Below are positions 16,602-62,213 of a stretch of 64,000 bases of DNA, one piece after another. Each line of letters begins with the position of its first letter. Within the stretch, counting starts at the first letter, position 1. The notes beneath the pieces are model-generated. The model was not told the origin of the DNA. It saw only the letters and a program-made list of their open reading frames with translations, and did no database searches. The stretch spans positions 4,603,001-4,667,000 of the forward strand of contig NZ_CP025791.1 in assembly GCF_002886045.1 (NCBI RefSeq). The letters run 5' to 3'. A program made the translations under genes and the position numbers. This stretch comes from Flavivirga eckloniae. GTDB taxonomy: Bacteria > Bacteroidota > Bacteroidia > Flavobacteriales > Flavobacteriaceae.

Positions 16602-16735
16602 AGAATTATTTTGGTTAGTAACACAACAATGTTAAGCAAATGATACAAAAAAATCAATAAATAGTAAAAAAAGATGAGAAAAAAGCAAGGGATATTGCAA
16701 TTTGCTTTGCCTTATATAAAATTAAACATAGTAAA

Positions 16736-17905: not shown

Positions 17906-17926
17906 AAAGCCTATGATATAAAAACA

Positions 17927-17981
17927 AAAGGAGGATAATAGTACTCATACTTTTCGAACGGTTCAAGACTATTTCCCCCTT
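17927..17981 (+). other. stem-loop in the FecR-SusC spacer, locus A
   Basis: AAAGGAGGATAATAGT (17927-17942) pairs with ACTATTTCCCCCTTT (about 17968-17982) with one bulge and one mismatch. No T-run follows. Comparable hairpins sit in all four FecR-SusC spacers of the window, with differing sequence. Confidence 0.5.
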
Positions 17982-18032
17982 TACAAGGTATTAATCAATT
18001 TAAAAATAAACCAACTAATAACACGTAAATTT

Positions 18033-24132: not shown

Positions 24133-24154
24133 TAAAATAGAAACACTAAAAAGA

Positions 24155-25561: not shown

Positions 25562-25595
25562 CCAAAATAATAATTTTAAAAATTAACTTAATATC

Positions 25596-29411: not shown

Positions 29412-31088
29412 TTAATCATATCCTATATTCTGTTCTAAAACTGCTTCAGAATTTCGCTCAATGTCTGAGTTTGGTATTGGCCATATATTTTGGTGATCAT
29501 TAATACCATTAGATGCATATGTACCATTATGCATAGGATCGTACATTCTCACTCTCTCTACAATATTACCCATTCGCATTAAAGTTAAAAGACGTAATTC
29601 TTCTCCAAAAAGTTCTCTTGCGCGTTCATCAAGAATGTAATCTATATCTACATCTGCAGCATCTACTAGAGGAGCATTTGCTCGTGTTCTTACGGCATTT
29701 ATATCATTAGCAGCACTACCAGCATCTCCATTAAGTAAATGGGCTTCAGCTCTTAATAAATATGTTTCAGGTAATCTCATTAAATAACGGTCTCGGTATG
29801 AATGATTTGCATCATTGTTGGTTAAACCTGTTACAGGGTCTACTATGAGCTCATCTGGATAATTACCTATTGGTGCTGCTTTTGCAACTATCGCACTCCA
29901 TTTTCTATTAAAAAGATTAAGGTTTTCTTCATCTTTATCGTTCGCAAATGCGCCGCTAGCTACAATGGGTTGCCCAAAAAAGGCAGATGCAGGGTTGTTA
30001 GCAACTATATCGCGAATAATGTTAAAATCAGAGTTTCTCATATCGTTTGCATTAGTACCTGCCCAAACATCTTCTAACCAATACTTTGAAGGAGCCCACC
30101 AACCTATTCCGCGGCCTCCGAAATTTTCATTAGGTCCAGTAAAAAGAGTTTCACCATTAACATCTTTTAATTGCCAGTACAAAGGCATTAAAAATCTAAT
30201 ATTATCTCCGTTACCTCCTCCTGGAGTAAGGTACTCATATTGACTTACCCAAATACTTTCGGTATTGCCAGATTTTCTATTTTGGTTACCTCTTCTAAAA
30301 AGATCCCAATACACATCTCCAGGTTCTGTACTTCTAGACCCAAAACGATTCTGCATTAATGCAAATCCTGAGTTATCGATAACTTCTGTAGCCGCAGCTA
30401 TGGCTTTATCGTAATCTTTTACTATAATGTATACTTCTGCTAAAAGATGGTTTCCTGCTCCCTTGGTTACTCGTCCATCTACTACTTCATCTGTTCCTGG
30501 CAAATCGGGAATGGCCTCAGTTAAATCCTGAATAACCAAATTCCAAACTTCTTGTTTAGAGGCTCTAACAAAATCTCTTTTAGCTTCTGTTGTTTCTTCT
30601 AAAGTTATAGGTACGCCTCCATAAATAATATTTAAGCCTCTATAAGCCCAAGCTCTAAAAAACTTGGCTTCAGCAATGTGTGCTTTACGTTCCTGTTCAG
30701 AAGTATAGTCTACTTGATCTATTCTTCCTAAAATAATGTTGGCATTAGCAATTATTTTATAAAATCTATCCCATGCCCATTCTACCTCTCCAGCATCTGG
30801 AGTCACTTTATCTTCCCATGAATTTAATGCATGAGTAGGATTGATGGCATCATATCCATAATCTGTAGTATAATGAAAAATAGCACTATTATCGGCTTGT
30901 TCGAACAACATAGCTCTTACATTCTCGTGCAACTTAGTAATTGCTGATTCTATAATTACTGGCTCTACGAACAAATTTTCTGGAGTATAAAAATCAAATG
31001 CTTCTTCCTTTAAAAATTCTTGTTCATTGCAGGAGCCTAATGTAACTAAGACTAAACTAATCCATATTAATTTTCTTAAATTTTTCAT
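29412..31088 (-). CDS. SusD/RagB-family lipoprotein, locus B
   Basis: 558-residue lipoprotein (LGSC, Cys20). Features of SusD: FLKEEAFDFYTPENLF start, AEAKFFRAWAYRGLNIIYGGVPI (about 125-148, TPR-like), VWNLVIQDLTEAIPDLPGTDEV, and a C-terminal ERARELFGEELRLLTLMRMG. Nearly collinear with the SusD of locus C (same length), with most blocks identical; differences cluster around residues 25-45 and 370-410. It lies 12 bases downstream of its SusC. Surface ligand-capture partner of the receptor. Confidence 0.95.
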   Translation of the reverse strand: MKNLRKLIWISLVLVTLGSCNEQEFLKEEAFDFYTPENLFVEPVIIESAITKLHENVRAMLFEQADNSAIFHYTTDYGYDAINPTHALNSWEDKVTPDAGEVEWAWDRFYKIIANANIILGRIDQVDYTSEQERKAHIAEAKFFRAWAYRGLNIIYGGVPITLEETTEAKRDFVRASKQEVWNLVIQDLTEAIPDLPGTDEVVDGRVTKGAGNHLLAEVYIIVKDYDKAIAAATEVIDNSGFALMQNRFGSRSTEPGDVYWDLFRRGNQNRKSGNTESIWVSQYEYLTPGGGNGDNIRFLMPLYWQLKDVNGETLFTGPNENFGGRGIGWWAPSKYWLEDVWAGTNANDMRNSDFNIIRDIVANNPASAFFGQPIVASGAFANDKDEENLNLFNRKWSAIVAKAAPIGNYPDELIVDPVTGLTNNDANHSYRDRYLMRLPETYLLRAEAHLLNGDAGSAANDINAVRTRANAPLVDAADVDIDYILDERARELFGEELRLLTLMRMGNIVERVRMYDPMHNGTYASNGINDHQNIWPIPNSDIERNSEAVLEQNIGYD

Positions 31089-31100
31089 AATCCTGTTTTT

Positions 31101-34100
31101 TTAAAATTCAACATTTAACCCTAATGAATAACTTTTCATTGTAGGCACACCGCCTGCTCCGAAACCGGCACCAGTTTCCGGGTCCCATCCGTTCCACTTG
31201 GTCCAGGTATAAAGGTTTTTGCCACTAACGAATATCTTAGCATTGCTAATTCCAAGTGTATTCATCGCTTTATTCGGAATATTATAGGATAGCGTTACAT
31301 CTTGTAATCTAACAAAGCTTCTTGATGAATATCGTGTTCCTCCACGTTGCGAACCGGTATCTAATCTTCTGTATTTCGCATTCGGGTTTTCCGGTGTCCA
31401 AAAATCAAAGCCACCGCTAGGTATATTAGTAAACGACAACTGCTCTCTTCTAGAGTGAATAGCATCATCTCCTAAATAATAGTCATCGCCTCCTTGTATA
31501 GAGTTAACAAATGCATAAAAAGTAAAATCTTTGTAAGTGATCGTATTAGCTATACCAAATCTATACGATGGATCTTGGTATCCAACAATTTTTCTATCAT
31601 CTATTGAAGAAATATTACCGTCATTGTTTAAATCTCTAAGTTTGTACGTTCCTGGAAAAAAACCAGCAGGTAAGGTTCCGTCTGCCTCATCTGCTATTTG
31701 CCACATTCCTATGATGTCATAATTGTAGAGAACATTTTGAGGCTCGCCTATAAAGAGTTCGTTTCTTGCTAAGTCATCTTCTTTTCCATCATTATCGCTA
31801 TCATTAGAAATTCCTAAAATAGACACGATCTCATTTCTAACTCTGTTAAAATTAAAGGATGTATTCCATTGAAAATCCTTATTTTTTACAATAGTTCCAT
31901 TTAAAGTAAGCTCAATTCCATTGTTTGCAACCTCAGCAATATTAGCATTAATACCACTAAAACCAGTAATCCTAGGAATTGCAATACCAAAAAGAATATT
32001 CTCTGTTTTATTGTTGTAGTACTCAACACTACCACTTAATCGAGAATTTAACATTTCAAAATCTAGTCCGAAATTAACACCAGTTGTGGTTTCCCAAGTC
32101 AATGAATTACTTGCTAATCTGGAAATAAATCGCCCTATTGACGGGTCGTTTCCGTCACCAAAAACAACAGATGGATCAGAATCTACTTTGGCACGAGTTT
32201 GTAAACGTTCAACTCCTCGTCTACCGGATTGTCCATAAGACCCTCGAAGCTTTAAAAAATTTAGCCATGAAGAATCATTAGCAAAACCTTCTTCGGTAAG
32301 CACCCAAGCAACCGCTCCAGTTGGAAATACAGCAGTTTTGTCATTTATACCAAATCCTGAGAAGCCATCGCGACGTACCGTACCTGTTAAGAAATATTTG
32401 TTTTTGTAGTTATACATTAACCTTGCCATTTGGTATAAACTACTTTCCTCTTCTTTTGCCGTTTCTATTTTTCTCAGTGTTGCATCTCCGTCTTGCAATC
32501 TATTATATCCTAAAACTTTTATATCAAAATTACTACCTTCAGCTCTGGTACTATTTATATGTCTATTTTCTATACCATATAATAGCGTAACATTCAAATT
32601 ATGAACATTGTTAAAACTTTTTCTATATGAAACAATATTATCCAAAGTTTGATCCCAACCAATATTATGTTGTTTGAAACCTGTTCCAACTTGTCCAACT
32701 CCTCCATATGGATCAAAATTAAATTGATTGGTTGTTCTATAAGCATTTGAATAATTCAGCCTATAGTTAAGTCCATCTATAGGTAAATCAATATCTGCAT
32801 ACAATGTGCTTGATAGATTTAATCGTATGTCTGAATTGTCTTGTTGAAGTACAAGAAAAGGGTTAATTCCATCTACCGGATTTATAATAAATTCTCCCTC
32901 ATCATCTTTTATAGGTGCCCACGGTTGTATACGAAATATATCTCTTGAAGTGGGACTAACTCCTGAATAATCACTAACAACAGCAAAGGTTTGTGTACCT
33001 ATTTTTAACCAGTCTGTTACTTTAGATTCTAGATTTACCCTAAAGTTGTATCTAGTATAATCATCCCCAACAAGGAATCCTTTTTGATCTGTAATACCCG
33101 CAGATACGAAATAATTGAAATTATCAGTTTTTTGCCTAATACTAATATTATGCATATTTATGCTACCAGTTCTAGTTAATTGATCCCACCAATCTACATC
33201 TAAACCAGCATTATATCCATCAACTAAAAAGGTACTCTTTAAATTCGCCGAAAAATCATAATTAGGATTTCTTTGAAGATAATCGGGGGCTATTCTCGCT
33301 CCTTCTTGCCAGAAAATCTCCGGATAAAACTCTGCATATTCTGCTGATCGCATTGGACGCATTTTATTTGATGGACTTTGCACAGAATAACTAGATGTAT
33401 AGTTTATTATAGGTTTTTGATCTGAACTTCCTCCACTCTTAGTTGTTATCACTAAAACACCATTTGCTGCCTGTGATCCGTAGATTGCTGCAGAACTAGC
33501 ATCTTTAAGCACATCTATTGCTTTAATATCAGAAGGGTTGATATCAACTAAGTTTCCTCTATAAATTATTCCATCTAATATAATAAGTGGTTGATTGGTA
33601 CTTGATTCATCTGTTTCCCTTCTATTGTCTTTATTATTATGCAACGTATTTCTTCCTCTAACAGATATGGTAGGGTTTTGACCGGCATCAGTCACTGCAT
33701 TTATATTAACTCCGGCAATAGCTCCTTGCAGTGCTTGAAGTATTGAAACATTTGTTGTTTGTACGGCATTGTCAAGATTAGCACTAGCTATTGAACCAGT
33801 TAAATCTTTTTTCTTCACTGTAGCTCCATAACCAACTACAACGACTTCTTCTAAAGTTGTAATGTTTTCTTTTAATGCTATTTCTAAGTTGGTTTTGCCA
33901 TCAAGCGGTATTTCTTGCGAAATAAAACCTACATAAGATGCAACTATAGTTACTCTATCGCTTGAAACATATAGGGTAAAGGTTCCGTCGAAGTCGGTTT
34001 GTGCTCCATTGGTAGTTCCTTTTTCTAAAACATTGGCACCGGGTAAAGGGCTACCATATTCATCTGTTACTTTTCCTTTAAGAGTAATATTTTGAGGGCT

Positions 34101-34505
34101 ATTTGCATCAAGCTTTAATCCAGCCTCTTCAGGCGCATTCTTTTTTGTTATAACAACTTGTCTATCGTCAATTAAATAGCCTAAGTTCGTATTAGAGAAT
34201 GCACTATTTAATACTTCAGAAAGCTTAGCGTTTTTAAGTTGTAACGAAATTTTTACATCTGGATTTAGAATCCCGTCTTTGTAAAAGATAATGTATTTGC
34301 TTTTGCTTTGAATTTCATTAAAAAGTTCCTCTAATGTTACATTGCTAACTTCAATGTCAATTTTTGTCTGGGCATGGTATGTATTAGCATAAACAGAACT
34401 AAATCCTATACTGATACATAAAAGAAATATTCTCATAATGATTTTTGCGCATAGGGACAGGAGATAATTACCCCGCATGGCAGTGCATTTAATAAAATTA
34501 TTCAT
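31101..34505 (-). CDS. SusC TonB-dependent receptor with STN domain, locus B
   Basis: 1134-residue outer-membrane receptor. Signal region (MRIFLLCISIGFSS core), STN domain (about 45-115; EVSNVTLEELFNEIQSKSKY, split), carboxypeptidase-D-like domain (ITLKGKVTDEYGSPLPGANV), plug (VVVGYGATVKKKDLTGS; LIILDGIIYRG; VLKDASSAAIYGSQAANGVLVITT) and a long barrel ending LGLNVEF. From about the plug on it is nearly identical to the locus C receptor, down to the DNA level at the 3' end, but its STN end is unlike that of locus C. FecR lies 127 bases upstream. Substrate presumably the same as locus C. Confidence 0.95.
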   Translation of the reverse strand: MNNFIKCTAMRGNYLLSLCAKIIMRIFLLCISIGFSSVYANTYHAQTKIDIEVSNVTLEELFNEIQSKSKYIIFYKDGILNPDVKISLQLKNAKLSEVLNSAFSNTNLGYLIDDRQVVITKKNAPEEAGLKLDANSPQNITLKGKVTDEYGSPLPGANVLEKGTTNGAQTDFDGTFTLYVSSDRVTIVASYVGFISQEIPLDGKTNLEIALKENITTLEEVVVVGYGATVKKKDLTGSIASANLDNAVQTTNVSILQALQGAIAGVNINAVTDAGQNPTISVRGRNTLHNNKDNRRETDESSTNQPLIILDGIIYRGNLVDINPSDIKAIDVLKDASSAAIYGSQAANGVLVITTKSGGSSDQKPIINYTSSYSVQSPSNKMRPMRSAEYAEFYPEIFWQEGARIAPDYLQRNPNYDFSANLKSTFLVDGYNAGLDVDWWDQLTRTGSINMHNISIRQKTDNFNYFVSAGITDQKGFLVGDDYTRYNFRVNLESKVTDWLKIGTQTFAVVSDYSGVSPTSRDIFRIQPWAPIKDDEGEFIINPVDGINPFLVLQQDNSDIRLNLSSTLYADIDLPIDGLNYRLNYSNAYRTTNQFNFDPYGGVGQVGTGFKQHNIGWDQTLDNIVSYRKSFNNVHNLNVTLLYGIENRHINSTRAEGSNFDIKVLGYNRLQDGDATLRKIETAKEEESSLYQMARLMYNYKNKYFLTGTVRRDGFSGFGINDKTAVFPTGAVAWVLTEEGFANDSSWLNFLKLRGSYGQSGRRGVERLQTRAKVDSDPSVVFGDGNDPSIGRFISRLASNSLTWETTTGVNFGLDFEMLNSRLSGSVEYYNNKTENILFGIAIPRITGFSGINANIAEVANNGIELTLNGTIVKNKDFQWNTSFNFNRVRNEIVSILGISNDSDNDGKEDDLARNELFIGEPQNVLYNYDIIGMWQIADEADGTLPAGFFPGTYKLRDLNNDGNISSIDDRKIVGYQDPSYRFGIANTITYKDFTFYAFVNSIQGGDDYYLGDDAIHSRREQLSFTNIPSGGFDFWTPENPNAKYRRLDTGSQRGGTRYSSRSFVRLQDVTLSYNIPNKAMNTLGISNAKIFVSGKNLYTWTKWNGWDPETGAGFGAGGVPTMKSYSLGLNVEF

Positions 34506-34532
34506 AATTTTGATTTTTAGGTTGTTTCTATT

Positions 34533-34597
34533 GCCGCATATTGCGGTGATGTTACTTCTTTGGCCGGGAGATGCTGCAACATCGTCCGGCTTTTTTT
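34533..34597 (-). other. two hairpins in the FecR-SusC spacer, locus B
   Basis: A GC-clamped stem GCCGG (34563-34567)/CCGGC (34586-34590) with inner GATG/CATC is followed on the + strand by T7, but on the operon (minus) strand by no U-run. A second short stem CCGCA/TGCGG lies at 34533-34546. Possible pause or processing sites. Confidence 0.45.
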
Positions 34598-34632
34598 ATT
34601 GATTTTGTGTTTTTATGTCATGTAGTTGTATT

Positions 34633-35694
34633 TTAATTGGTTATATTAATTTGATTATGGTTTATCTTTTTATATTTTAAATCTGTAGTTTTCGAAATTA
34701 TTTCGATAACTTTTTCTACGTCTTCCTTTAAATCGAGATACCCAGTAAATGTTTGTTTAGCCAAGTCTTTGTCTTGTATCGTAATAGGGACATTGTAATA
34801 TCTGGAGAGACGTTTCATGATATATTGAAGGTCATGTTTTTTCAAAACTAAAATTCCATCTCTCCAAGCGAAATAGTGATTTACATCTACTATTTTAGAA
34901 CTAACTTTTTTGGTCTTAATACTAACATTGGCCTTCGTGCCTGGCGAAATAGTCATGCTTTTGTTCGATAGGTTTTCATCGTAAGTTATATGAACGCTTC
35001 CACTCTCTAGTACAACAAAATTATTATCTTCATCAGGGTAACTACTTACATTAAATACTGTACCCAATACTTTAATTTTTTGGTTTTGAGATAGTACCAT
35101 AAAAGGACTGTTTGCATTATGGGTAACATCAAAAATGGCCTCTCCTTCTAAGTAAACTTCTCGTTTATCTGTTTCGAATAGAGCTGGGTATATTAATTTA
35201 GAACCAGAATTTAGCCATACCAAACTACCATCTGAAAGCTTTATTTTCGATCTCTTGCCATATGGGACCAATACAGTATTAAAAGCAGCTTTTTTGTTTT
35301 TGGAAGTCTTTTGGGCAATTGTTTTTGAATTGCCAATGTTTACTTTTTCGCCAGTTTTAGAGTAGCTTATCGAAGTAGAGTCACCCTCTATATTTACATC
35401 TTCGTTATTAGCTAGTATAAGTGTTACCTTATTGGATTCGTTAACATTAATGCCCTTTGAAGATTTTACAAAGTCTGTAATAGATGGTTTTTCATTATTG
35501 TACATAATGTATAGGCCAGTTCCCATTAAAACAGTAATTGAAGCAGCTATTTTTAGAGTATATTGAAGTCGGCGTTTTTTCCTGTTTAAGGCATGTATAG
35601 AATGAAAGATTCGCTCCTTCAACTGCTTTTTTTCCTGTTCGGAAAAAGGCTGAGGATTTATATTTTTTAAAGAATCTTTTTTCATAGTGTCCAT
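34633..35694 (-). CDS. FecR-family anti-sigma factor, locus B
   Basis: 353 residues. Basic N-terminal cytoplasmic segment (1-44), one membrane helix (about 45-65, IAASITVLMGTGLYIMY), then the FecR domain (VPYGKRSKIKLSDGSLVWLNSG, GEAIFDVTHNANSPF, VLGTVFNVSSY) and a C-terminal DUF4974-type domain (RYYNVPITIQDKDLAKQTFTGYLDLKED in pieces). VPYGKR instead of VPRGGQ places it in another subgroup than the FecR of loci A and C, closer to locus D. An ATG at 35685 is an alternative start. Confidence 0.92.
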   Translation of the reverse strand: MDTMKKDSLKNINPQPFSEQEKKQLKERIFHSIHALNRKKRRLQYTLKIAASITVLMGTGLYIMYNNEKPSITDFVKSSKGINVNESNKVTLILANNEDVNIEGDSTSISYSKTGEKVNIGNSKTIAQKTSKNKKAAFNTVLVPYGKRSKIKLSDGSLVWLNSGSKLIYPALFETDKREVYLEGEAIFDVTHNANSPFMVLSQNQKIKVLGTVFNVSSYPDEDNNFVVLESGSVHITYDENLSNKSMTISPGTKANVSIKTKKVSSKIVDVNHYFAWRDGILVLKKHDLQYIMKRLSRYYNVPITIQDKDLAKQTFTGYLDLKEDVEKVIEIISKTTDLKYKKINHNQINITN

Positions 35695-35822
35695 AATAAG
35701 ATTAATAGCCGCTTTTTTGACTTATCAAGGAGCTGTTATTAGTATAAGCACCTTATACTTTGTTTATAGACAAATTTTTTTAATTTTTTTTAAGAAAAAT
35801 TTAATAAGGCATTAACACAAGC

Positions 35823-36455
35823 TTAAAAAAGCCATTTAATGAATGACATTCCGGAAGCTGTAAAGATTAGAAATAAGATGGGGGACTTTCTTAGAAGTTT
35901 TAAAGCTCTATAAATATTAGTTCTAACAGAAGGTACGGAAATGCCCATTATTTGGGCAATTTCTTCATAAGGCATATCTTCAACTATTCTAAGTATAACA
36001 CTTTTTCTTTGCTTTTCGGTTAGCTCTTTTAAAGCACCTTCGAGCATCATGCTTTGTTTTAGTATGGACTCTGAGTTAATAATTTTAGATTCTTCAGATT
36101 CTATACTATTGGTAGAAGATTGTAGAATGGAAAGTGAATCGTCGCTTTGAATAGGAACCACCTTTTTATTATATTTTTTAATTATTTTTCTTTTTAAGGA
36201 TTTTAACAGATAGTATTTTACATTATCCGTATCGGCTAATTTTGCTTTGTATTTGTACAAATCCAGAAATAAGTCATGAATACAATCTTCTATATAGTCT
36301 TTTTCTTTGGTTTGCTTCAAACCATAAAGAAATAAATCGTCAACATACCGATCGTATAACTCTCCTAGCGCACCAGTGTCTCCTTGCTTTATTTTTGCCC
36401 AAATAATACTATCAGACAGATTATGTTCTAGATATGCTTTTTTATCTGCTTTCAT
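35823..36455 (-). CDS. ECF sigma factor, locus B
   Basis: About 210 residues from the ATG at 36455; a longer frame opens with a TTG at 36506. Sigma region 2 (ALGELYDRYVDDLFLYGLKQ; DCIHDLFLDLYKYK) and region 4 (MPYEEIAQIMGISVPSVRTNIYRALKLLR) are recognisable, with a longer spacer between them (about 100-145) than in the locus A/C sigma factors. Same strand as FecR and 128 bases upstream of it, unlike loci A and C where sigma is divergent. A distinct sigma clade from locus C despite the near-identical receptors. Confidence 0.9.
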   Translation of the reverse strand: MKADKKAYLEHNLSDSIIWAKIKQGDTGALGELYDRYVDDLFLYGLKQTKEKDYIEDCIHDLFLDLYKYKAKLADTDNVKYYLLKSLKRKIIKKYNKKVVPIQSDDSLSILQSSTNSIESEESKIINSESILKQSMMLEGALKELTEKQRKSVILRIVEDMPYEEIAQIMGISVPSVRTNIYRALKLLRKSPILFLIFTASGMSFIKWLF

Positions 36456-37042
36456 TAGTTTAGACGTACTTGTTTTTTTGAATACCTTTAAACTACATTG
36501 TAACAATTCTGCGTTAATAGCGTGTTAAAGTTCTTACCCCTTCATGTTGGCAAATATCATAATTTTTTTTAAAAATTAATCCATTGAAACATAGTTGTGT
36601 TACATAATTAATAAAAAAATGCTTTTCATCGTTTACTTTTATATTTTTTGTAAATATTTTAGGATTGTGTTTTAATTTAATACTTCAGATTTTTTATTTA
36701 CGGCTATAAATTCTTTAGGCATAGATATTTTTAAATTTATGATATAGTTTCCGCAAAACTTAAAATGTATTAACCTTTGTTAAAGAAGGAGGTTCTAGTA
36801 ATGTAGCACAATATTTTTCTAATTTTTTGTAATTCTATTATAAAAAACGAGGCTATTTGTTGCTAGTACCAATAAATAACTAGCTGAGTTATTTTATAAA
36901 ATAATATTGAATATATCTCCAGAGATTATTGTGAATAAGGTGTTGCTCAGAAGAAGTACTATATAAATTTTATCGATATAACTTTTTGTAATACAGTAGC
37001 TTTTGTGAATCCGTTCTGCTGCTTTTTAGGAAGATATATAAA
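36456..37042. other. 587-bp AT-rich spacer between the two sigma genes
   Basis: Very AT-rich and without a supported ORF. It must contain the promoter of the locus B sigma gene (minus) and the 3' end of the locus C sigma transcript (minus). No strong hairpin, repeat or exact promoter consensus was identified by eye. Confidence 0.6.
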
Positions 37043-37636
37043 TTACGGATTGATCTTTTTCATTCTAAACAATAAAAACATCAAAGAAATCATCTTTTCT
37101 TTCATTCTTTTACGAAGAATAGAAAAGGCCTTGACCATTTGTTTTTCAACTGTATTTACGGATACGTTTTGAAATTCTGCAATTTCAATATAAGTGAGTC
37201 CTTCCTTTTTACTTAATAAGAAGGTTTCTCTGCACTTATTGGGTAATTGTTCTATTTCTTTATTTATGAAGTGCATTATCCTTTTGGTCTCATCTTCATC
37301 TTTCACCATAGTCACGAAATCTAAACCTTCAATATATTTTTTTTCTAATGCAGTAATGGCAATTTCTTTTCGATATTGATCAACAAATTCGTTATAAACA
37401 GATTTATATAAATAATTTTTAATCGAAATGTCAGCTTTTAATTTTTCTCGCTGTTGCCACATTCTAACAATTACATTTTGCACAATATCTTCCGACTTAA
37501 AATCATCTCTGGCCAGATTAGTCGCGTAATCACATAGCTTTTCATAGTAAAGCTCTACGAGATAAGTATAGGCATGAGTATTACCTTTTCTTAATGATCG
37601 TATAAGTTTTTTTTGACTTAAAAACTGCTTTTTCAA
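37043..37636 (-). CDS. ECF sigma factor, locus C
   Basis: 197 residues. Starts with TTG (no in-frame ATG or GTG at the right place). Region 2 (AYTYLVELYYEKLCDYATNL; DIVQNVIVRMWQQREK) and region 4 (GLTYIEIAEFQNVSVNTVEKQMVKA, split) are clear. It resembles the locus A sigma factor in both sequence (LPNKCRETFLLSKKEGLTYIEIAE versus LPKKCKQTFLLNKEEGLTNIEIAE, shown as split blocks) and divergent position 104 bases from FecR. It likely transcribes the locus C receptor operon when freed from FecR. Confidence 0.92.
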   Translation of the reverse strand: MKKQFLSQKKLIRSLRKGNTHAYTYLVELYYEKLCDYATNLARDDFKSEDIVQNVIVRMWQQREKLKADISIKNYLYKSVYNEFVDQYRKEIAITALEKKYIEGLDFVTMVKDEDETKRIMHFINKEIEQLPNKCRETFLLSKKEGLTYIEIAEFQNVSVNTVEKQMVKAFSILRKRMKEKMISLMFLLFRMKKINP

Positions 37637-37740
37637 AGGGTTAGAGAGAATTTTTATTTTAACAAATTTAATTTTTTTTTACAAAAAGTGGTGGTACAGC
37701 AATTTTAGTTTCGTTATAAGAGTATAAATGTTATGAAAAA

Positions 37741-38910
37741 GTGAATATAAATATTGAGAAATTAATTGTAAAATTTCTAGCAAAGGAGGCTGATCTTGAA
37801 GAACTCAAACAATTGGAAGTATGGATCAGTAACCCAGAGAATGAGGCCCTATTTTTTGAATTCATAAAGACGAATGCTTTTATAAAAATGACGATGAGCA
37901 ACTATGATAAAAAGAGGGCGAAAGCAAATATAATACGTCGCATAAAACAAGAAAAAAGTATTTTCTATAATAAACATAAGGGCAATAATATATTTAAGTA
38001 TGCAGCAGCAGCAATGATTATAGGAGTTTTGGCTGCTACCTATATCTTTAGAAATGATTTATTTGAAGAGCCCATAGAAACGCCTTCTGTGGTTGTTGAA
38101 GAACCTATAGAAATGGGCACAGATAAAGCCATCCTTACATTAGAAGATGGTTCTTTTATTGAATTGGATGAAGATGCTGTGTTCGCAACAAAAAATTTGA
38201 ATAGTAATGGCAAACAAATAGTATATGACACAGAGAGTAAAAGCGCTGAAAAAATAGAATATAACTATTTAACAATTCCGAGAGGAGGTCAATACGCTGT
38301 GAAGTTGTCTGATGGTACCCAAGTATGGTTAAATTCAGAATCTCAACTAAAGTACCCAGTAAGCTTTGAAGCTGGAAAGCCCCGTCAAGTGGAGTTGATA
38401 TATGGAGAAGCCTATTTTGATGTGTCTCCAAGTGCCAAACATGAAGGTTCAAAATTTAAGGTATTTAATAAATCTCAAGAAATTGAGGTGTTAGGAACAG
38501 AATTTAATGTAACAGCATATAAGGATGAAACAATTATTTATACCACATTGGTAGAAGGTAGGGTGGTGATTAACACTTCGACCTCTAAGCAAACACTTAA
38601 ACCAAATGAACAGTCAAGTTTGAATACTGCAAACAACAGTATAGATATAGCAAAGGTTGATGTAAAAGTTGTAACGGCTTGGGTTAATGGCAAATTCATT
38701 TTTAAAGGTAAGTCACTAAAAGATATCACCAAAGTACTATCTAGATGGTATGATGTAGATTTTGAATTTGAAAACAAATCGCTCGAAGAAGCTAAATTTA
38801 TAGGAGAGCTAGGTAAGCGTCAAAATCTGGAAAAAATATTACAATTAATTAAAAACACAAATTATATAAATGCCTATGAAATAAAAGGAAAAAAAGTAAT
38901 ACTAAAATAA
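37741..38910 (+). CDS. FecR-family anti-sigma factor, locus C
   Basis: 389 residues with a GTG start. A three-codon mini-ORF (ATG AAA AAG TGA, 37733-37744) overlaps the start region, which may lower initiation. Domains as in locus A: N-terminal sigma-binding part, membrane helix (about 82-102), FecR domain (IPRGGQYAVKLSDGTQVWLN; GEAYFDVSPSAKH; VLGTEFNVTAY) and DUF4974-type C-terminus. Length and blocks nearly match the locus A FecR, not the locus B one, although the receptor barrel matches locus B. Confidence 0.93.
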   Translation: MNINIEKLIVKFLAKEADLEELKQLEVWISNPENEALFFEFIKTNAFIKMTMSNYDKKRAKANIIRRIKQEKSIFYNKHKGNNIFKYAAAAMIIGVLAATYIFRNDLFEEPIETPSVVVEEPIEMGTDKAILTLEDGSFIELDEDAVFATKNLNSNGKQIVYDTESKSAEKIEYNYLTIPRGGQYAVKLSDGTQVWLNSESQLKYPVSFEAGKPRQVELIYGEAYFDVSPSAKHEGSKFKVFNKSQEIEVLGTEFNVTAYKDETIIYTTLVEGRVVINTSTSKQTLKPNEQSSLNTANNSIDIAKVDVKVVTAWVNGKFIFKGKSLKDITKVLSRWYDVDFEFENKSLEEAKFIGELGKRQNLEKILQLIKNTNYINAYEIKGKKVILK

Positions 38911-38914
38911 AAAA

Positions 38915-38961
38915 AGAGGGATAGAACTATCTGCATGCGACCGCGAATAAGTCTTCCCTCT
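38915..38961 (+). other. stem-loop in the FecR-SusC spacer, locus C
   Basis: AGAGGGA (38915-38921) pairs with TCCCTCT (38955-38961), with a palindromic TGCATGC in the loop. No T-run. Positioned like the hairpins of the other three loci. Confidence 0.45.
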
Positions 38962-39011
38962 CAAGTCGATCAATTAATTAAATGTTTAACTAACTAATAC
39001 CATGCAAATTT

Positions 39012-42000
39012 ATGGAAATTAAATTAACCAATGTCTGCTTTCCGTTAGGAAAAAGACTTTTACTGATCATTATGAGAACATTCATATTCTTATGTTTTTT
39101 TTCAGGATTCGGTGTTACCCCCAATAACGTTCTATCCCAAAATGTTAAAATTGTTATAGATACTGATAAGACGGTAACTGTGGACGAGATCTTTATGATG
39201 ATCAGCGATCAAACAGATTATGAGTTTATTTATCATGAAGATCTTTTTAAAAACCTCCCCAAAGTACAATTAAAAAAGGGAGTGATTAGAGCCAATAAAC
39301 TATTGAAGGAAAGTATTTCTAACGATAACGTGCTTTTTGAGTTTACTAGCAATAATACCATTATTATTAAGGAAAAGGATACCACTTCATCTGGTTTAGT
39401 AAGTGTACAACAAGGCCACGAAGTATCTGGTACTATTAATGATGTAAATGGACAACCCTTACCAGGTGCTACTATTCTTGAAAAAGGTACAACCAATGGC
39501 GTTACAACAGATTTTGATGGTAAATATTCATTAGGACTTTCTAGTGATAATGCAACTTTGGTAATATCCTACATTGGTTTTGCTACTCAGGAAATACCGG
39601 TAGCCGGACAGTCTCAGATAGATGTTGTTCTTAGAGAGGTTGTATCGTCTTTAGAAGAAGTTGTAGTAATTGGTTATGGAGCCACGGTGAAGAAAAAAGA
39701 TTTAACAGGGTCTGTAGCAAGTGCCAATTTAGATAATGCTCTTGAGACCACTAATGTTTCCATAGTTCAAGCATTACAAGGAGCTATTGCTGGTGTTAAC
39801 ATAAGTGCAGTAACTTCTGCCGGTTCAAACCCAGTCATATCTGTAAGAGGACGAAATACGTTGCATAATAATGATGACCGAAACCCGGCTACAGACGAGT
39901 CGAATACAAATTTACCACTTATTGTATTGGATGGAATAATATATAGAGGAAGTTTGGTTGATATCAACCCTTCTGATATTAAAGCAATAGATGTGCTTAA
40001 AGATGCCAGTTCTGCAGCAATCTACGGATCACAGGCAGCAAATGGTGTTATAGTAATAACGACTAAGAGTGGAGATACTTCAAATAGAAAACCTATAATA
40101 AACTATACATCAAGTTATTCAATACAAAGCCCATCCAATAAAATGCGCCCAATGCGTGCGGCAGAATATGAAGAGTTTTATCCGGAAATTTTCTGGCAAG
40201 AAGGAGCGAGAATAGCTCCCGATTATCTTCAACGAGATCCTAATTATGATTTTTCAGGAAATCTAAAAAGTACTTTTTTAAGAGACGGGTATAATGCTGG
40301 CATAGATGTAGATTGGTGGGATCAGCTAACAAGAAATGGTACCGTAAACATGCATAATATTAGTATTAGGCAAAAAAGAGAGAACTTTAGTTATTTCGTA
40401 TCTGCTGGTATTACAGACCAAAAAGGGTTTCTGGTAGGTGATGATTATACCAGATATAACTTTAGGGTAAATTTAGAATCAAAAATAAACGATTGGCTAA
40501 AAATAGGGACACAAACCTATGCCGTTGTTAGTGATTACTCAGGAGTTAGTCCCACTTCAAGAGATATATTTCGTGTACAACCGTGGGCACCTATAAGAGA
40601 TGATGAGGGAGAATTTATTGTTGCTCCGGTAGATGGAATTAACCCTTTTCTTGTACTTCAACAAGACAATTCAGATATACGGTTAAACCTATCAAGTACA
40701 TTGTATGCAGATATTGATTTACCTATAGATGGCCTTAATTACCGAATGAATTATTCAAATGCTTATCGTACTACAAATCAATTCAATTTTGATGCTTTTG
40801 GAGCTAGTCAAACAGGATTGGGTTTTAAAGAATATAGAATTGGTTGGGATCAAACTTTGGATAATATTGTTTCATATAGAAAAAGTTTTAACGATGTCCA
40901 TAATTTGAATGTTACGTTATTATATGGTATAGAAAAAAGACATATCAATATTACAGATTCAGAAGCCAGTAACTTTGAATTAGACATTTTGGGGTATAAC
41001 AGATTGCAAGCTGGTGACCCTACACTTAACAAAATAGAAACGAGAAAAGAAGAAGAAAGTAGTTTATACCAAATGGCAAGAGTTTTGTATAACTACAAAA
41101 ACAAATATTTCTTAACAGGTACGGTACGTCGCGACGGTTTCTCTGGTTTTGGTGTAAATGACAAAACTGCTGTATTTCCAACTGGAGCGGTTGCTTGGGT
41201 GCTTACCGAAGAAGATTTTGCCAATGACTCTTCATGGCTAAATTTCTTAAAACTTCGAGGGTCTTATGGACAATCGGGTAGACGTGGTATTGAACGACTG
41301 CAAACGCTTGCTAGAGTAGGATCTGACCCATCTGTAGTATTCGGAGATGGAGCAACCCCATCGCAAGGACAATCTATTACCAGTTTGGCAAGTAATACGT
41401 TAACATGGGAAACTACTACAGGTCTTAATGTTGGAGTTGATTTTCAGGTCATGGATTCTCGACTTGGTGGTAGCATTGAATATTATAATAATAAAACAGA
41501 AAATATTCTTTTTGGTATTGCACTGCCTAGAACAAGTGGTTTTAGTGGTATTAATGCTAATATTGCCGAGGTAGCTAATAATGGAATTGAGCTTACTTTA
41601 AATGGAACCATCGTGAAGAATGATGATTTCCAATGGAATGCATCTTTTAATTTCAATAGAGTAAGAAATGAAATAGTCTCTATTTTAGGACCTTCTAATG
41701 ATAGCGATAACGATGGGCAAGAAGATGATTTAGTTGGAAACCGGTTATTTATAGGAGAACCTCAAAATGTTGTTTACGATTATGACATTATAGGGATGTG
41801 GCAAATAGCAGATGAGACCAATGGAAATTTACCAGATGGTTTTTTTCCTGGAACATATAAGCTTGGGGATTTAAACGGAGATGGCGACATTTCTTCATTA
41901 GACGATAGAAGAGTTATTGGGTATGCCGATCCATCATATAGATTTGGTATAGCTAATACCATTACTTATAAAGATTTCACTTTTTATGCATTTATTAACT

Positions 42001-42401
42001 CTATTCAAGGAGGCGATAATTATTATTTAGGAGATGATGCTATTCACTCAGTAAGGGAACAGTTATCCTTTACTAACATCCCTAGCGGAGGTTTCGACTT
42101 TTGGACTCCTGAAAATCCGAATGCACGATACAGAAGGTTGGATACCGGTTCACAATTTGGTGGACGACCATATTCATCAAGAAGTTTTGTTAGACTACAA
42201 GATGTTACGCTATCCTACAATATTCCAAATAAGGTAAAGGACATGATTGGGCTTAGCAGCGCTAAATTATTTATTAGCGGTAAAAACCTTTATACCTGGA
42301 CCAAGTGGAACGGATGGGACCCGGAAACAGGCGCCGGTTTCGGAGCAGGCGGTGTGCCTACAATGAAAAGTTATTCATTAGGGTTAAATGTAGAATTTTA
42401 A
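39012..42401 (+). CDS. SusC TonB-dependent receptor with STN domain, locus C (mosaic)
   Basis: 1129 residues. The first ~115 residues (MEIKLTN..., MRTFIFLCFFSGFGVTPNNVLSQ in pieces; STN with FIYHEDLFKNLPKVQLKKGVI) align with the locus A receptor (FIYHENLFKDFPKVELKKGII), including near-identical DNA around the start codon. From the carboxypeptidase-D-like domain (LPGATILEKGTTNG) and plug (GYGATVKKKDLTGS) to the last residue (LGLNVEF) it aligns with the locus B receptor at very high identity. The switch lies between STN and plug. Imports the same type of ligand as locus B but should signal through the locus A-type FecR/sigma pair (inference). Confidence 0.95.
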   Translation: MEIKLTNVCFPLGKRLLLIIMRTFIFLCFFSGFGVTPNNVLSQNVKIVIDTDKTVTVDEIFMMISDQTDYEFIYHEDLFKNLPKVQLKKGVIRANKLLKESISNDNVLFEFTSNNTIIIKEKDTTSSGLVSVQQGHEVSGTINDVNGQPLPGATILEKGTTNGVTTDFDGKYSLGLSSDNATLVISYIGFATQEIPVAGQSQIDVVLREVVSSLEEVVVIGYGATVKKKDLTGSVASANLDNALETTNVSIVQALQGAIAGVNISAVTSAGSNPVISVRGRNTLHNNDDRNPATDESNTNLPLIVLDGIIYRGSLVDINPSDIKAIDVLKDASSAAIYGSQAANGVIVITTKSGDTSNRKPIINYTSSYSIQSPSNKMRPMRAAEYEEFYPEIFWQEGARIAPDYLQRDPNYDFSGNLKSTFLRDGYNAGIDVDWWDQLTRNGTVNMHNISIRQKRENFSYFVSAGITDQKGFLVGDDYTRYNFRVNLESKINDWLKIGTQTYAVVSDYSGVSPTSRDIFRVQPWAPIRDDEGEFIVAPVDGINPFLVLQQDNSDIRLNLSSTLYADIDLPIDGLNYRMNYSNAYRTTNQFNFDAFGASQTGLGFKEYRIGWDQTLDNIVSYRKSFNDVHNLNVTLLYGIEKRHINITDSEASNFELDILGYNRLQAGDPTLNKIETRKEEESSLYQMARVLYNYKNKYFLTGTVRRDGFSGFGVNDKTAVFPTGAVAWVLTEEDFANDSSWLNFLKLRGSYGQSGRRGIERLQTLARVGSDPSVVFGDGATPSQGQSITSLASNTLTWETTTGLNVGVDFQVMDSRLGGSIEYYNNKTENILFGIALPRTSGFSGINANIAEVANNGIELTLNGTIVKNDDFQWNASFNFNRVRNEIVSILGPSNDSDNDGQEDDLVGNRLFIGEPQNVVYDYDIIGMWQIADETNGNLPDGFFPGTYKLGDLNGDGDISSLDDRRVIGYADPSYRFGIANTITYKDFTFYAFINSIQGGDNYYLGDDAIHSVREQLSFTNIPSGGFDFWTPENPNARYRRLDTGSQFGGRPYSSRSFVRLQDVTLSYNIPNKVKDMIGLSSAKLFISGKNLYTWTKWNGWDPETGAGFGAGGVPTMKSYSLGLNVEF

Positions 42402-42413
42402 AAAAGTGTGATT

Positions 42414-44179: not shown

Positions 44180-46600
44180 ATGAAAAAATTAAGAATACCC
44201 TTACTATTACTGTGTTTTTTTATAAGCACAAAGGGCGTTTCTGCTCAGCCTAAGTGTACTAATCTTGACTCGTACAATGTTGTTTGGCATGAACAAAGTA
44301 AAAACAGTGCAGAATCTATGCCCGTTGGAGGCGGAGATATTGGATGTAATGTATGGGTAGAAAATGGCGAATTAATATTATATGTACAACGAAGTGGGAG
44401 TATTGCAGAGACCAACGAATATTTAAAATTAGGTCGTGTACGTGTGAAATTAAGCCCAAATCCTTTTTCAGCTCGTGGAGATCACCATAAGTTTAGTCAG
44501 GAGTTAAAGCTTCACGATGGTTATATAGAGATTCAAGGAGAAAAACAACACAAAGGAAAAACATTAAAGTCAACATTGCGTATATGGGTAGATGTTCACC
44601 GGCCTATGGTTCACATAGAGGTTGAAGCAAACCAAAAGATTAAAGTAGATGTTGCTTATGAAAATTGGAGAATGAAGGATGAAGTTATCACCAACGATGG
44701 TCGAAGACATTCTACCTTTAATTTAGATAGCTATCCTGGGAAAGTTTTGCTTTCTAAAGATGATGTTGAACAGCAAAAAGAACATATTGTTTTTTACCAT
44801 CGTAATCCAGATGATAAATTGCTTCCAGACCTACTAATTGAACAGCAAGGATTAGAGGCATATAAAGCAGAGATAACAGACGATCTTAAAGGACGTATTT
44901 TTGGAGGTATGCTTTACGGCGATGGTTTTATAGCATCAAAAACCACCACTGACGAATATCAAGGTAAGCATTTTACCGCGTGGCATATGGTTTCTAAGAA
45001 AAAGAAAAAAAAGCATCATATTAAATTGGTTTCCCATATCTCACAAACAAATACTGTAGAAAATTGGCAAAAAGGTTTGGATGAGATATTAATGGATCCA
45101 ATAGCTAAGAATACAGAACAAGCCTATAGTGCTTCTAAAGCATGGTGGCATGAGTTTTGGTCCAGAAGTCATATTTTCATTAAGCCCGAAACACCTGATA
45201 AAAAGGATAAAGCATGGGTAATAGCACGTAACTATCAATTATTTCGTTATCAATTGGGATGCAATGCCTTTGGGGAGTACCCTACAAGGTTTAACGGCGG
45301 AAACTTTACTGTAGATTCTGGATTAATTGAAAAAAGAAGAGATTTCGGTCCAGATTTTCGTGCATGGGGCGGTGGCGTCTTTACAGCTCAGAACCAGAGG
45401 TTAATTCATTGGCCGATGCTAAAAACGGGTGATTTTGATGCTATTCTACCTCATTTCGAATTGTTTCGTAAAGGGTTGCCAGGAGCAAAAGCTCGAGTAA
45501 AGGAACATTTTGGTCATGATGGTGCTGTTTATAGTGAGTATACTAATGTACCGGGATTAGCATTGGGTGCTGGTTACGGATGGTCGGAAGGATCTCGAAA
45601 AAGAGGAACAGAAGTGGCTCTGGGAGATGAACGGGCAAATGGCGCAAAAGGATATAATAGTATCGTAGAAAAGGGTGTTATGGCTAATCCTGCTATTTCT
45701 TACCATTGGGAGTCCCAATTGGAAAATGCGTACATGATCATGGAATATCACCGCTATACAGGTAAGGATATTACTAAATATTTACCCTTTATAAAACAAT
45801 CTGTAATCTTTTTCGATGAGCACTATCGTATGCGGGAAAAGATACGTAGAGGTAAAGAGTTGAACGACTCGGGTAAATTAGTGTTTTACCCATCCACATC
45901 TTGTGAAACCTATCGGGGCGCAAAAGATCCTGTAGATGTAGTATCCGGGTTGGAAGCTTGTTTAACGTCTTTATTAAAATTGGATGAAGCTTATGTGAGC
46001 ACAGCAGAAAAGAAATACTATAAAGCATATCTGGATAGACTGCCTGGATATTATTATGATGAAGTAAAGGGAGATACCATTTTAAAACCTGCTGAAAGCT
46101 GGAAATTTTATCTAAACTCTGAATGCCCACAATTCTACCCGCTGTTTCCTTTTAATAGATTCGATATGGGAAAAGACGATATGACGGTTTTTCATAACAC
46201 ATGGAAGCATGGCGAGTTTCCAAAGAACATGGTGATTAGCTGGCATCAGGATGGTATTTTCTTTGCCCGTATGGGGATGACGGCAGAAGCAGAAGATTAC
46301 AATACCAAAAAATTAATGAGCTCAGAACGTAGATTCCCTACCTTTTGGGGCCCCGGACATGATTGGGTACCTGATCATAATTGGGGAGGATCTGGAATGA
46401 TTGGCTTGCAGGAAATGTTGATGCAATGTTTTGAAGACAGAATCCTATTGTTTCCTTCTTGGCCCAAACATTGGGATGTTGATTTTAAACTTCACGCACC
46501 TAAAAATACAACCATAGAAGGCATCTTAAAAAATGGAAAACTTATTGAACTTAAAGTAACTCCCGAAAGCAGGAGAAAGGATGTCGTTGTGCTAAATTAG
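44180..46600 (+). CDS. DUF5703 / GH95-like glycoside hydrolase, locus C
   Basis: 806 residues with signal peptide (about 1-22, ending VSAQ). Same domains as the locus B enzyme: DUF5703-type N-terminal beta-domain (SMPVGGGDIGCNVWVENGE), helical toroid (RNYQLFRYQLGCN; YHWESQLENAYMIMEYHRYTG, split; FWGPGHDWVPDHNWGGSG) and C-terminal beta-domain. High identity in the barrel; larger differences in the N-terminal domain and the loop after GYGW (GERANGAKG region). Preceded by a strong intrinsic terminator, so expression depends on read-through or its own promoter. Likely cell-surface or periplasmic exo-enzyme; fucose or galactose specificity is only an inference from GH95 similarity. Confidence 0.85.
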   Translation: MKKLRIPLLLLCFFISTKGVSAQPKCTNLDSYNVVWHEQSKNSAESMPVGGGDIGCNVWVENGELILYVQRSGSIAETNEYLKLGRVRVKLSPNPFSARGDHHKFSQELKLHDGYIEIQGEKQHKGKTLKSTLRIWVDVHRPMVHIEVEANQKIKVDVAYENWRMKDEVITNDGRRHSTFNLDSYPGKVLLSKDDVEQQKEHIVFYHRNPDDKLLPDLLIEQQGLEAYKAEITDDLKGRIFGGMLYGDGFIASKTTTDEYQGKHFTAWHMVSKKKKKKHHIKLVSHISQTNTVENWQKGLDEILMDPIAKNTEQAYSASKAWWHEFWSRSHIFIKPETPDKKDKAWVIARNYQLFRYQLGCNAFGEYPTRFNGGNFTVDSGLIEKRRDFGPDFRAWGGGVFTAQNQRLIHWPMLKTGDFDAILPHFELFRKGLPGAKARVKEHFGHDGAVYSEYTNVPGLALGAGYGWSEGSRKRGTEVALGDERANGAKGYNSIVEKGVMANPAISYHWESQLENAYMIMEYHRYTGKDITKYLPFIKQSVIFFDEHYRMREKIRRGKELNDSGKLVFYPSTSCETYRGAKDPVDVVSGLEACLTSLLKLDEAYVSTAEKKYYKAYLDRLPGYYYDEVKGDTILKPAESWKFYLNSECPQFYPLFPFNRFDMGKDDMTVFHNTWKHGEFPKNMVISWHQDGIFFARMGMTAEAEDYNTKKLMSSERRFPTFWGPGHDWVPDHNWGGSGMIGLQEMLMQCFEDRILLFPSWPKHWDVDFKLHAPKNTTIEGILKNGKLIELKVTPESRRKDVVVLN

Positions 46601-60881: not shown

Positions 60882-60924
60882 GTATAGTTTAAGAGTTGGT
60901 CGTCTATATAGTATGTAAGTACAT

Positions 60925-62085: not shown

Positions 62086-62178
62086 TTAAAAACCCAAACT
62101 ATATGAACTAACAAACAATCAGACCACAAAATCGACTATTCAACTTAATTACGTCACCTAATTTTATCTAATAAAAAA

Positions 62179-62213
62179 TAAACCGGAAAATGCTGGCACA
62201 TTTTACCGGTTTA
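62179..62213 (+). other. stem-loop in the FecR-SusC spacer, locus D
   Basis: TAAACCGGAAAATG (62179-62192) pairs with CATTTTACCGGTTTA (62199-62213) with one bulged A. No T-run on the + strand. Confidence 0.55.

What the first reader, a model, noticed from the sequence alone, without database searches (positions are those of the whole stretch)
31101..42401. Mosaic SusC: receptor/transport core from one locus, signalling end from another
The locus C receptor (39012-42401) carries an STN end nearly matching locus A (18033) but a carboxypeptidase-like domain, plug and barrel nearly matching locus B (31101). Its sigma and FecR also match locus A in length, VPRGGQ/IPRGGQ motif and divergent layout, while locus B uses a different FecR (VPYGKR) and sigma clade in tandem layout. 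This suggests exchange of a complete signalling cassette (sigma + FecR + STN) across a breakpoint inside the receptor gene, rewiring the same importer to another signal.
Basis: partly seen in the sequence, partly recalled or inferred. Interest (0 to 1): 0.72.

Follow-up and report, generated by a model that had tools for sequence, protein, structure and literature searches.

The report
Swappable sensor and importer gene modules
A bacterium's sugar-import-type receptor is a natural hybrid whose signalling end and transport end have different ancestries, and relatives show such parts being exchanged repeatedly inside the genes, at joints between domains that touch different partners.

Summary
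The mosaic is real. Receptor C (39012-42401) matches B at 86% from the plug onward (SusD 84%, DUF5703 71%) but at 29% in its N-terminal STN segment. Module trees conflict: barrels join C, B and a Flavivirga rizhaonensis receptor (100/100), while STN (p-AU 1.9e-7) and FecR (9.8e-7) reject that clade.

Corrections. A is not C's closest sensor relative: its STN is 50% identical and row 50 of 119 genus matches. C's carboxypeptidase-like domain closely matches neither A nor B; identity to B jumps at the Ton box. The exchanged unit is not one sigma+FecR+STN cassette.

Across 83 genus systems three units appear: sigma + cytoplasmic FecR; periplasmic FecR + STN; plug-barrel + SusD. One seam lies inside FecR near the membrane segment, the other inside SusC between STN and Ton box. 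At one F. rizhaonensis site, upstream genes, sigma, FecR and STN are syntenic with congeners while barrel and SusD differ: importers change behind a resident sensor. Published PupA/PupB chimeras suggest that the barrel sets the inducer and STN the listener, so 'rewired to another signal' is probably the wrong way round. New variant of known cell-surface signalling; the sample was not unbiased.

The parts
37043..37636 (-). ECF sigma of locus C (module 1, with FecR cytoplasmic part)
   Evidence: Pfam Sigma70_r2 38.5 and r4_2 37.5 bits; nearest sigma 59% in L273 and L277
37741..37986 (+). FecR-C cytoplasmic part, residues 1-82 (module 1)
   Evidence: SIG-FECN rho 0.65 and FECN-FECC -0.12 within C-type; nearest L277 56%
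37996..38910 (+). FecR-C membrane segment (placed by eye from residue 86) and periplasmic part (module 2)
   Evidence: FecR and FecR_C Pfam domains; STN-FECC rho 0.74-0.75 over the genus sets; nearest L208 68%
38911..39011 (+). fecR-susC spacer: short hairpin and a leader shared by C-type systems
39012..39416 (+). SusC-C signal peptide and divergent STN segment, residues 1-135 (module 2)
   Evidence: 50% to A, 29% to B; profile match to B/X-type STN Prob 98.3; fold match to PupA signalling domain
39423..39668 (+). carboxypeptidase-like domain (residues 138-219), a hinge tied closely to neither side
   Evidence: CarbopepD_reg_2; 53% to B, 48% to A
39649..39680 (+). junction at the Ton box (codons 213-223) where DNA identity to B rises
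   Evidence: inverted-repeat arm starts at 39649; codon windows
39678..42398 (+). plug and barrel of SusC-C (module 3)
   Evidence: 85.6% to B; 100/100 clade with B and L202
42408..44084 (+). SusD-C (module 3)
   Evidence: 84.1% to SusD-B; SusD_RagB
44180..46600 (+). DUF5703 protein of locus C (duplicated with the importer)
   Evidence: 71.4% to B copy; PF18961; relatives 9hyq, 9hmb in the PDB
35823..36506 (-). ECF sigma of locus B
   Evidence: clade with L194 and L205, 98/95, in the sigma tree
34633..35694 (-). FecR-B
   Evidence: clade with L194 and L205 100/99.9
34089..34505 (-). signal peptide and STN segment of SusC-B
   Evidence: Pfam STN 32.1 bits at residues 71-122
31104..33827 (-). 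plug and barrel of SusC-B
29412..31088 (-). SusD-B
26851..29301 (-). DUF5703 protein of locus B
15993..21554 (.). locus A sigma (-), FecR and SusC (+): same sigma clade and STN class as C, unrelated barrel

Best explanation
SusC-C is one product of recurrent recombination among cell-surface-signalling SusC systems. The chain from substrate to transcription is built of three exchangeable units: (1) ECF sigma plus the cytoplasmic part of FecR; (2) the periplasmic part of FecR plus the fecR-susC leader and the STN segment of SusC; (3) the SusC plug-barrel plus SusD, sometimes with neighbouring genes. Exchange occurs inside genes: in fecR near the membrane segment, and in susC between the end of STN and the Ton box, with the carboxypeptidase-like domain as a loose hinge. 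Each seam lies between domains that touch different partners, so every unit keeps its own interface. Shown: the mosaics, the discordant trees, the block structure and, at the F. rizhaonensis site, a syntenic sensor with a different barrel and SusD behind it. Inferred: that B and C arose by copying one import unit in inverted orientation behind two different sensors, homologous or homeologous recombination as the process, function of the hybrids, and that the barrel sets the inducer while STN and FecR choose the sigma.
For: Identity profiles of C/A/B. Trees of 28 systems: barrel {C,B,L202} 100/100, STN rejects it (p-AU 1.9e-7), FecR rejects it (9.8e-7), barrel rejects the STN classes (5.5e-56, 5.4e-6, 1.1e-50). 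Class labels taken from the STN and FecR trees need 5 changes there (the minimum for six classes, partly by construction), 7 on sigma and 11 on the barrel tree. FecR halves: the sigma clade of 7 appears in FecR-N (82/83, not starred) and is rejected by FecR-C (1.9e-58); the 11-member STN class appears in FecR-C (100/99.9) and is rejected by FecR-N (0.019) and sigma (4.2e-7). Mantel over 83 genus systems after dropping six orthologues: FECC-STN 0.75, BAR-SUSD 0.51, SIG-FECN 0.50; STN-BAR 0.13, FECC-BAR 0.11, SIG-BAR -0.03; along SusC the correlation with FecR-C falls from 0.73 (residues 91-130) to 0.09 (121-160). Synteny of F. rizhaonensis with G248: 21 upstream ORFs at 74-100% (19 above 90%), sigma 93%, FecR 89%, then the receptor 40% overall; receptor DNA 0.93-0.97 over codons 1-60 and 0.51 beyond codon 420. 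Other pairs: L287/L293 STN 0.90, barrel 0.37; Cyclobacterium L045/L046 barrel 0.87, STN 0.24.
Against: Systems were picked by STN likeness (C, B and L202 types) or barrel likeness, so frequencies are not unbiased. Permutations numbered 200-300 and pairs are not independent. Within C-type the link of single FecR windows to STN is weak (-0.08 to 0.25, rising only to 0.37-0.45 at residues 326-380) and FECC-BAR is 0.26 (p 0.010); within the other types the FecR halves are still linked (0.31) and STN-SIG is 0.30. The FecR-N rejection rests on about 82 residues (p 0.019). STN-BAR over the genus is weak but not zero (0.13, p 0.003). Some relatives keep all modules together (for instance L294/L298, L286/L299, L289/L315), and of 23 reciprocal best barrel pairs 14 have STN identity of 0.5 or more. 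Long branches were flagged in the STN, barrel, FecR and sigma trees. No mechanism of exchange was seen at the junctions. Three downstream ORFs at the F. rizhaonensis site are shared with F. amylovorans (74-83%), so the right edge of the importer unit is unclear.
Confidence: 0.82

Rival explanations
1. One breakpoint only: a complete sigma+FecR+STN cassette was exchanged against the importer.
For: Fits the L202 group and the B group, where sigma, FecR and STN trees agree; outside C-type, SIG, FECN, FECC and STN are all positively linked, 0.25-0.74.
Against: Within C-type, which holds C and A, SIG-FECC is -0.17 and FECN-FECC -0.12; pairs such as L251/L267 have FecR-C 0.76 and STN 0.70 but FecR-N 0.19 and sigma 0.26; AU tests on the FecR halves.
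Confidence: 0.12
2. No exchange: STN segments simply evolve much faster than barrels.
For: STN segments are short and variable; some pairs have lower STN than barrel identity with all modules still alike (L043/L048: 0.76 against 0.96).
Against: C's STN is close (60-64%) to other receptors of which the five put into the barrel tree have unrelated barrels, and the reverse contrast occurs (L287/L293: STN 0.90, barrel 0.37). AU tests reject a shared history both ways.
Confidence: 0.02
3. B/C is a slow invertible switch: two inverted copies of the import unit flank two back-to-back sensors, and inversion would trade sensors between importers.
For: Inverted arms of 186-1727 nt at 75-87% identity enclose both sensors; exact runs up to 71 bp; SusC shufflons exist in Bacteroides (PMC5729914 and PMC12548429, passages).
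Against: None of the 10 further window ORFs scanned is an invertase; the one mobile-element gene seen is an IS110-type transposase at 47273-48259. The arms differ at 13-25% of sites; reads were not available, so no second orientation could be looked for.
Confidence: 0.05
4. Convergence or partner co-evolution makes STN and FecR-C look alike without transfer.
For: STN and FecR-C of E. coli bind each other (review PMC9249621, passages).
Against: Likeness spans the periplasmic half of FecR, the non-coding leader and the susC start; in F. rizhaonensis against G248 two DNA stretches reach 86.9 and 92.4% and are syntenic.
Confidence: 0.03

Closest known systems
FecIRA / PupB-type cell-surface signalling (FecI, FecR, FecA; PupA-PupB chimeras)
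   Same: Same chain: TonB-dependent receptor with STN, FecR anti-sigma, ECF sigma. The review (PMC9249621, passages) reports that FecR's N-terminal part binds sigma region 4 of FecI, residues 101-317 bind the FecA signalling domain, residues 85-100 span the membrane, and that a PupBA chimera keeps transport and inducer specificity of PupA while signalling through the PupB domain.
   Different: Those chimeras were made in the laboratory on siderophore receptors; here natural hybrids recur in SusC systems, with an added carboxypeptidase-like domain and a second seam inside FecR.
SusC/SusD allele variation in the Bacteroides thetaiotaomicron fructan PUL (Joglekar 2018, PMC5967196; abstract and outline seen)
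   Same: The importer pair of a PUL differs between strains and changes substrate use.
   Different: What I saw does not mention STN segments, FecR or breakpoints inside susC.
SusC shufflons of Bacteroides (PMC5729914, PMC12548429; passages)
   Same: Alternative SusC/D pairs are brought under one controller.
   Different: Those are DNA inversions, in B. fragilis at repeats overlapping the susC start behind an invertible promoter; here the hybrids differ between species and loci, with seams inside genes, and no inversion was shown.

Membership tests
SusC/RagA TonB-linked transporter | TIGR04056 above its cut-off | tested here: met
   C 747.9, B 748.8, A 588.9 against 368.25 bits
SusC/RagA TonB-linked transporter | SusD gene directly downstream | tested here: met
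   SusD_RagB in 21568-22962, 29412-31088 and 42408-44084
Cell-surface-signalling transducer | Pfam STN domain (PF07660) | tested here: not met
   met by B (32.1 against 28.4 bits), not by A or C, nor by any of 8 C-type segments
Cell-surface-signalling transducer | STN fold at the N-terminus | tested here: met
   profile-profile Prob 98.3 against B/X-type STN, aligned columns 20-120 including part of the signal peptide; model of 4 sequences, mean pLDDT 63.5, block means 69-86 over residues 41-120; Foldseek rank 4 is PupA signalling domain 2a02, prob 1.00, E 0.01, TM by target 0.66, with FpvA, PupB and FecA domains also listed. Rank 1 by E-value was a Legionella Dot protein with 11.8 A rmsd
Cell-surface-signalling transducer | FecR-type anti-sigma gene upstream | tested here: met
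   PF04773 and PF16344 in all three FecR
Cell-surface-signalling transducer | ECF sigma gene adjacent | tested here: met
   Pfam sigma domains in all three; no Sigma70_r2 hit in B; TIGR02985 met by A, below cut-off for B, C not scanned there
Cell-surface-signalling transducer | substrate-dependent sigma release | not testable with these tools
   needs expression data
Phase-variable SusC shufflon | site-specific recombinase and inverting segment | tested here: inconclusive
   inverted arms present; no invertase among the 10 ORFs, IS110-type transposase present; not every window ORF was scanned, and reversibility cannot be tested

The most novel reading that the evidence does not exclude
In Flavobacteriia, signalling SusC systems are a natural three-piece kit, assembled by recombination at two recurrent intragenic seams (FecR near the membrane segment; SusC between STN and Ton box). 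Sensors can stay at chromosomal sockets while importers are exchanged behind them, so new uptake circuits arise by crossover at interface boundaries rather than by point mutation.
Probability: 0.67. Interest if true: 0.78.

Novelty: new variant of a known kind. Interest (0 to 1): 0.68.

Why it matters
Bacteroidota can carry dozens of SusC systems, and how each keeps matching partners while new uptake circuits arise is open. Seams between contact surfaces, inside genes, give a simple answer and a prediction: natural hybrids already show where chimeras should work. It also warns against assigning regulators or substrates from one end of SusC or FecR only, since the two ends can have different relatives.

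Tried and rejected
Rejected: A as the closest source of C's signalling end; carboxypeptidase-like domain as part of the B-like block; rate-based divergence. A Bacteroides-type promoter in the fecR-susC spacer was not found: the exact pattern TTG-N18-22-TAnnTTTG occurred in 0 of 41 C-type and 0 of 48 other genus spacers, but only 0.2 and 0.1 were expected by chance and no variant was tried, so whether a sigma-dependent promoter travels with module 2 is open. No orthologous socket for locus C itself was looked for beyond the loci fetched. The B/C inversion switch has no positive support beyond anatomy. Ten paper searches (open-access library only; listings seen, 43 and 69 returned nothing) named no report of natural STN/barrel or FecR-half exchange; subscription papers may. 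PMC7782687 (passages) says that the CPD-type extension precedes STN in SusCs; in these receptors STN comes first (B).

Selection and dropped rows: 115 loci (93 of the genus set, 22 others) gave 112 systems with a FecR gene within -60 to 900 nt of a SusC ORF of 850 aa or more; 111 had a sigma and 94 a SusD; loci without such a pair dropped out. The genus loci were chosen from the hits (236 rows in all, some places in more than one list), mostly the best rows, plus the barrel relatives. Six whole-system orthologues were dropped. In one search five loci were left out as copies of G-handle contigs. Module boundaries are those of receptor C. FECN is FecR residues 1-82; FECC runs from residue 171 and 105. 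The FecR split was thought of after sigma and STN proved unlinked. The 11-member class was named from the STN tree, and the sigma clade of 7 from the sigma tree, before either was tested on the other modules.
Full report
What is there. The window lies in a 5.67 Mb single-contig genome, probably a Flavivirga: same-genus genomes G401 and G398 match named Flavivirga contigs in length and coordinates (inference). Three sigma/FecR/SusC systems concern the finding. Locus A is sigma 15993-16601 (-), FecR 16736-17905, SusC 18033-21554. Locus B runs leftward: sigma 35823-36506, FecR 34633-35694, SusC 31101-34505, SusD 29412-31088, DUF5703 26851-29301. Locus C is sigma 37043-37636 (-), then rightward FecR 37741-38910, SusC 39012-42401, SusD 42408-44084, DUF5703 44180-46600, with an IS110-type transposase at 47273-48259. 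B and C are inverted copies from about the plug to near the end of DUF5703.

The observation. C against B is 29.2% in the N-terminal segment, 52.9% in the carboxypeptidase-like domain (CPD) and 85.6% in plug plus barrel; SusD 84.1%, DUF5703 71.4%. C against A is 50.0%, 48.2% and 31.5%; FecR 46.1%, sigma 42.8%. In windows of 25 residues C/B identity jumps between 201-225 (13/25) and 226-250 (22/25), at the Ton box as placed by likeness to that of Bt1763, which follows the CPD (PMC7782687, passages). So a mosaic exists, but 'nearly matching A' and 'CPD matching B' do not hold. C's STN segment has 119 matches in 12 of 12 genus genomes, 15 of them in its own genome and itself included; A is row 50. 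B's segment has 39 matches in 9 of 12 genomes, the best after itself 57% and then 36%.

The STN label. Pfam STN is found in B, not in A or C, nor in 8 of 8 C-type segments. Profile comparison with B/X-type segments gives probability 98.3. A model from four sequences (mean pLDDT 63.5; block means 69-86 over residues 41-120) matches the PupA signalling domain (prob 1.00, TM by target 0.66, E 0.01, rank 4; rank 1 is a Legionella Dot protein at 11.8 A rmsd). It is best called a divergent STN.

Trees. On 28 systems the barrel tree joins C, B and L202 (F. rizhaonensis) at 100/100, and rejects {L202 with its three STN kin} (5.5e-56), the 11-member C-type (5.4e-6), {B, L205, L194} (1.1e-50) and {C, A} (1.4e-68) (LG+G4, long branches flagged). 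STN rejects {C, B, L202} (1.9e-7) and {C, B} (3.4e-6). FecR rejects the same two (9.8e-7, 3.1e-8) and recovers the 11-member class and the B class. Six classes named from the STN and FecR trees need 5 changes on those trees (the minimum, partly by construction), 7 on sigma and 11 on barrels; the nine closest barrels taken alone need 4.

A case with direction. The F. rizhaonensis importer (barrel 80% and SusD 83% to C) sits behind sigma, FecR and STN that are syntenic with G248: 21 upstream ORFs at 74-100% (19 above 90%), sigma 93%, FecR 89%. The receptor begins at 0.93-0.97 DNA identity (codons 1-60), falls to 0.52 at codons 121-140 and is 0.51 beyond codon 420. F. amylovorans shares two upstream ORFs (82-85%) and the sensor; the window's own genome has the same sensor at 300434-302948 without the upstream synteny, and these two carry yet another receptor (57% alike). 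So at that site the sensor stayed and the receptor barrel and SusD differ between species; which importer came last is not known. Three downstream ORFs are shared between F. amylovorans and F. rizhaonensis (74-83%), and a DUF5703 relative (45%) lies at 146598-148964 of the F. rizhaonensis contig, so the right edge is not settled.

Genus-wide pattern. From 115 loci, 112 systems were read, 89 of them of the genus set. After dropping six whole-system orthologues, 83 gave Mantel correlations: FECC-STN 0.75, BAR-SUSD 0.51, SIG-FECN 0.50, against STN-BAR 0.13, FECC-BAR 0.11, SIG-BAR -0.03 and FECN-FECC 0.20. Within C-type (40) SIG-FECN is 0.65, FECC-STN 0.48, SIG-FECC -0.17 and FECN-FECC -0.12, but FECC-BAR 0.26 (p 0.010); among the other 43 the sensor parts remain partly linked (FECN-FECC 0.31, SIG-STN 0.30), with STN-BAR 0.01. 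Along SusC the link to FecR-C falls from 0.73 to 0.09 between residues 91-130 and 121-160; along FecR the link to STN rises across residues 76-130, though within C-type alone single FecR windows are only weakly linked to STN. Explicit FecR hybrids exist: L251/L267 have FecR-C 0.76 and STN 0.70, but FecR-N 0.19 and sigma 0.26. On the 28 systems the sigma clade of 7 appears in FecR-N (82/83) and is rejected by FecR-C (1.9e-58), while the STN class appears in FecR-C (100/99.9) and is rejected by sigma (4.2e-7) and FecR-N (0.019). Among 23 reciprocal best barrel pairs SusD is also a nearest neighbour in 21 and STN in 11; STN identity is below 0.35 in 5 and at least 0.5 in 14. Among 22 reciprocal best STN pairs FecR-C is at least 0.5 in 22; the barrel is below 0.35 in 9 and at least 0.5 in 11. 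These frequencies come from a sample chosen by STN or barrel likeness.

Where the seams fall. L287/L293 switch after the CPD (STN 0.90, CPD 0.91, barrel 0.37); Cyclobacterium L045/L046 switch before it (CPD 0.82, STN 0.24). The CPD therefore goes with either side. The fecR-susC spacers of C-type systems share a leader just before the start codon (CAAATTT in 32 of 41, TAACTAA in 37 of 41; shuffled means 1.6 and 3.8), and spacers fold more stably than coding controls (21 of 96 against 3 of 96 with z below -2; 15 shuffles each). So the spacer appears to belong to the STN unit.

How it most likely works. In FecR of E. coli the N-terminal part binds sigma region 4 and residues 101-317 bind the FecA signalling domain, with the membrane segment at 85-100; a PupBA chimera keeps the barrel's inducer but signals through the PupB domain (review PMC9249621, passages). 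The seams found here lie at those divisions. Hence the likely reading: the barrel and SusD set what is imported and sensed, STN plus FecR-C carry the message, FecR-N plus sigma set the output. Changing STN alters who listens, not what is heard. That reading rests on other bacteria and is inference here.

Known and new. The parts are known families. Laboratory chimeras, strain-level SusC/D differences (PMC5967196, abstract and outline) and SusC shufflons (PMC5729914, PMC12548429, passages) are the nearest known things. Ten searches of an open-access library listed no report of natural exchange at these two seams; this is not proof of absence.

Noticed in passing
G000:C1:2724506-2727577 (L011, L039): A third paralogue of the B/C importer (48%) lacks an STN segment; no FecR or sigma was found in the 18 kb of L039, and the ORF upstream looks AraC-like by eye (no family search run); SusD follows.
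   Followed up: partly
window 38911-39011 and the spacers of related systems: fecR-susC spacers often carry a short hairpin after the fecR stop and, in C-type systems, a conserved leader before the susC start, whatever the barrel.
   Followed up: partly
L045 and L046 (Cyclobacterium): Two Cyclobacterium receptors share barrel (0.87), CPD (0.82) and SusD (0.80) but not STN (0.24), FecR (0.35) or sigma (0.28): an independent exchange outside Flavobacteriaceae.
   Followed up: partly
L287 (G405) and L293 (G402): Sigma, FecR, STN and CPD are 0.90-0.92 alike, with barrels at 0.37: a sharp switch at the Ton box.
   Followed up: partly
window 60324-63998 (L318): A fourth sigma/FecR/SusC system with VPYGKRF in its FecR; among the 112 systems its only sigma partner at 0.55 or more is the F. 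amylovorans L203 sensor (sigma 0.62, STN 0.42).
   Followed up: no
window 47273-48259: An IS110-type transposase follows the duplicated C import unit; other copies were not searched.
   Followed up: no
window 23047-26618: Three consecutive thioredoxin-like/AhpC-TSA proteins follow SusC/SusD of locus A, so A may not be a sugar locus.
   Followed up: no
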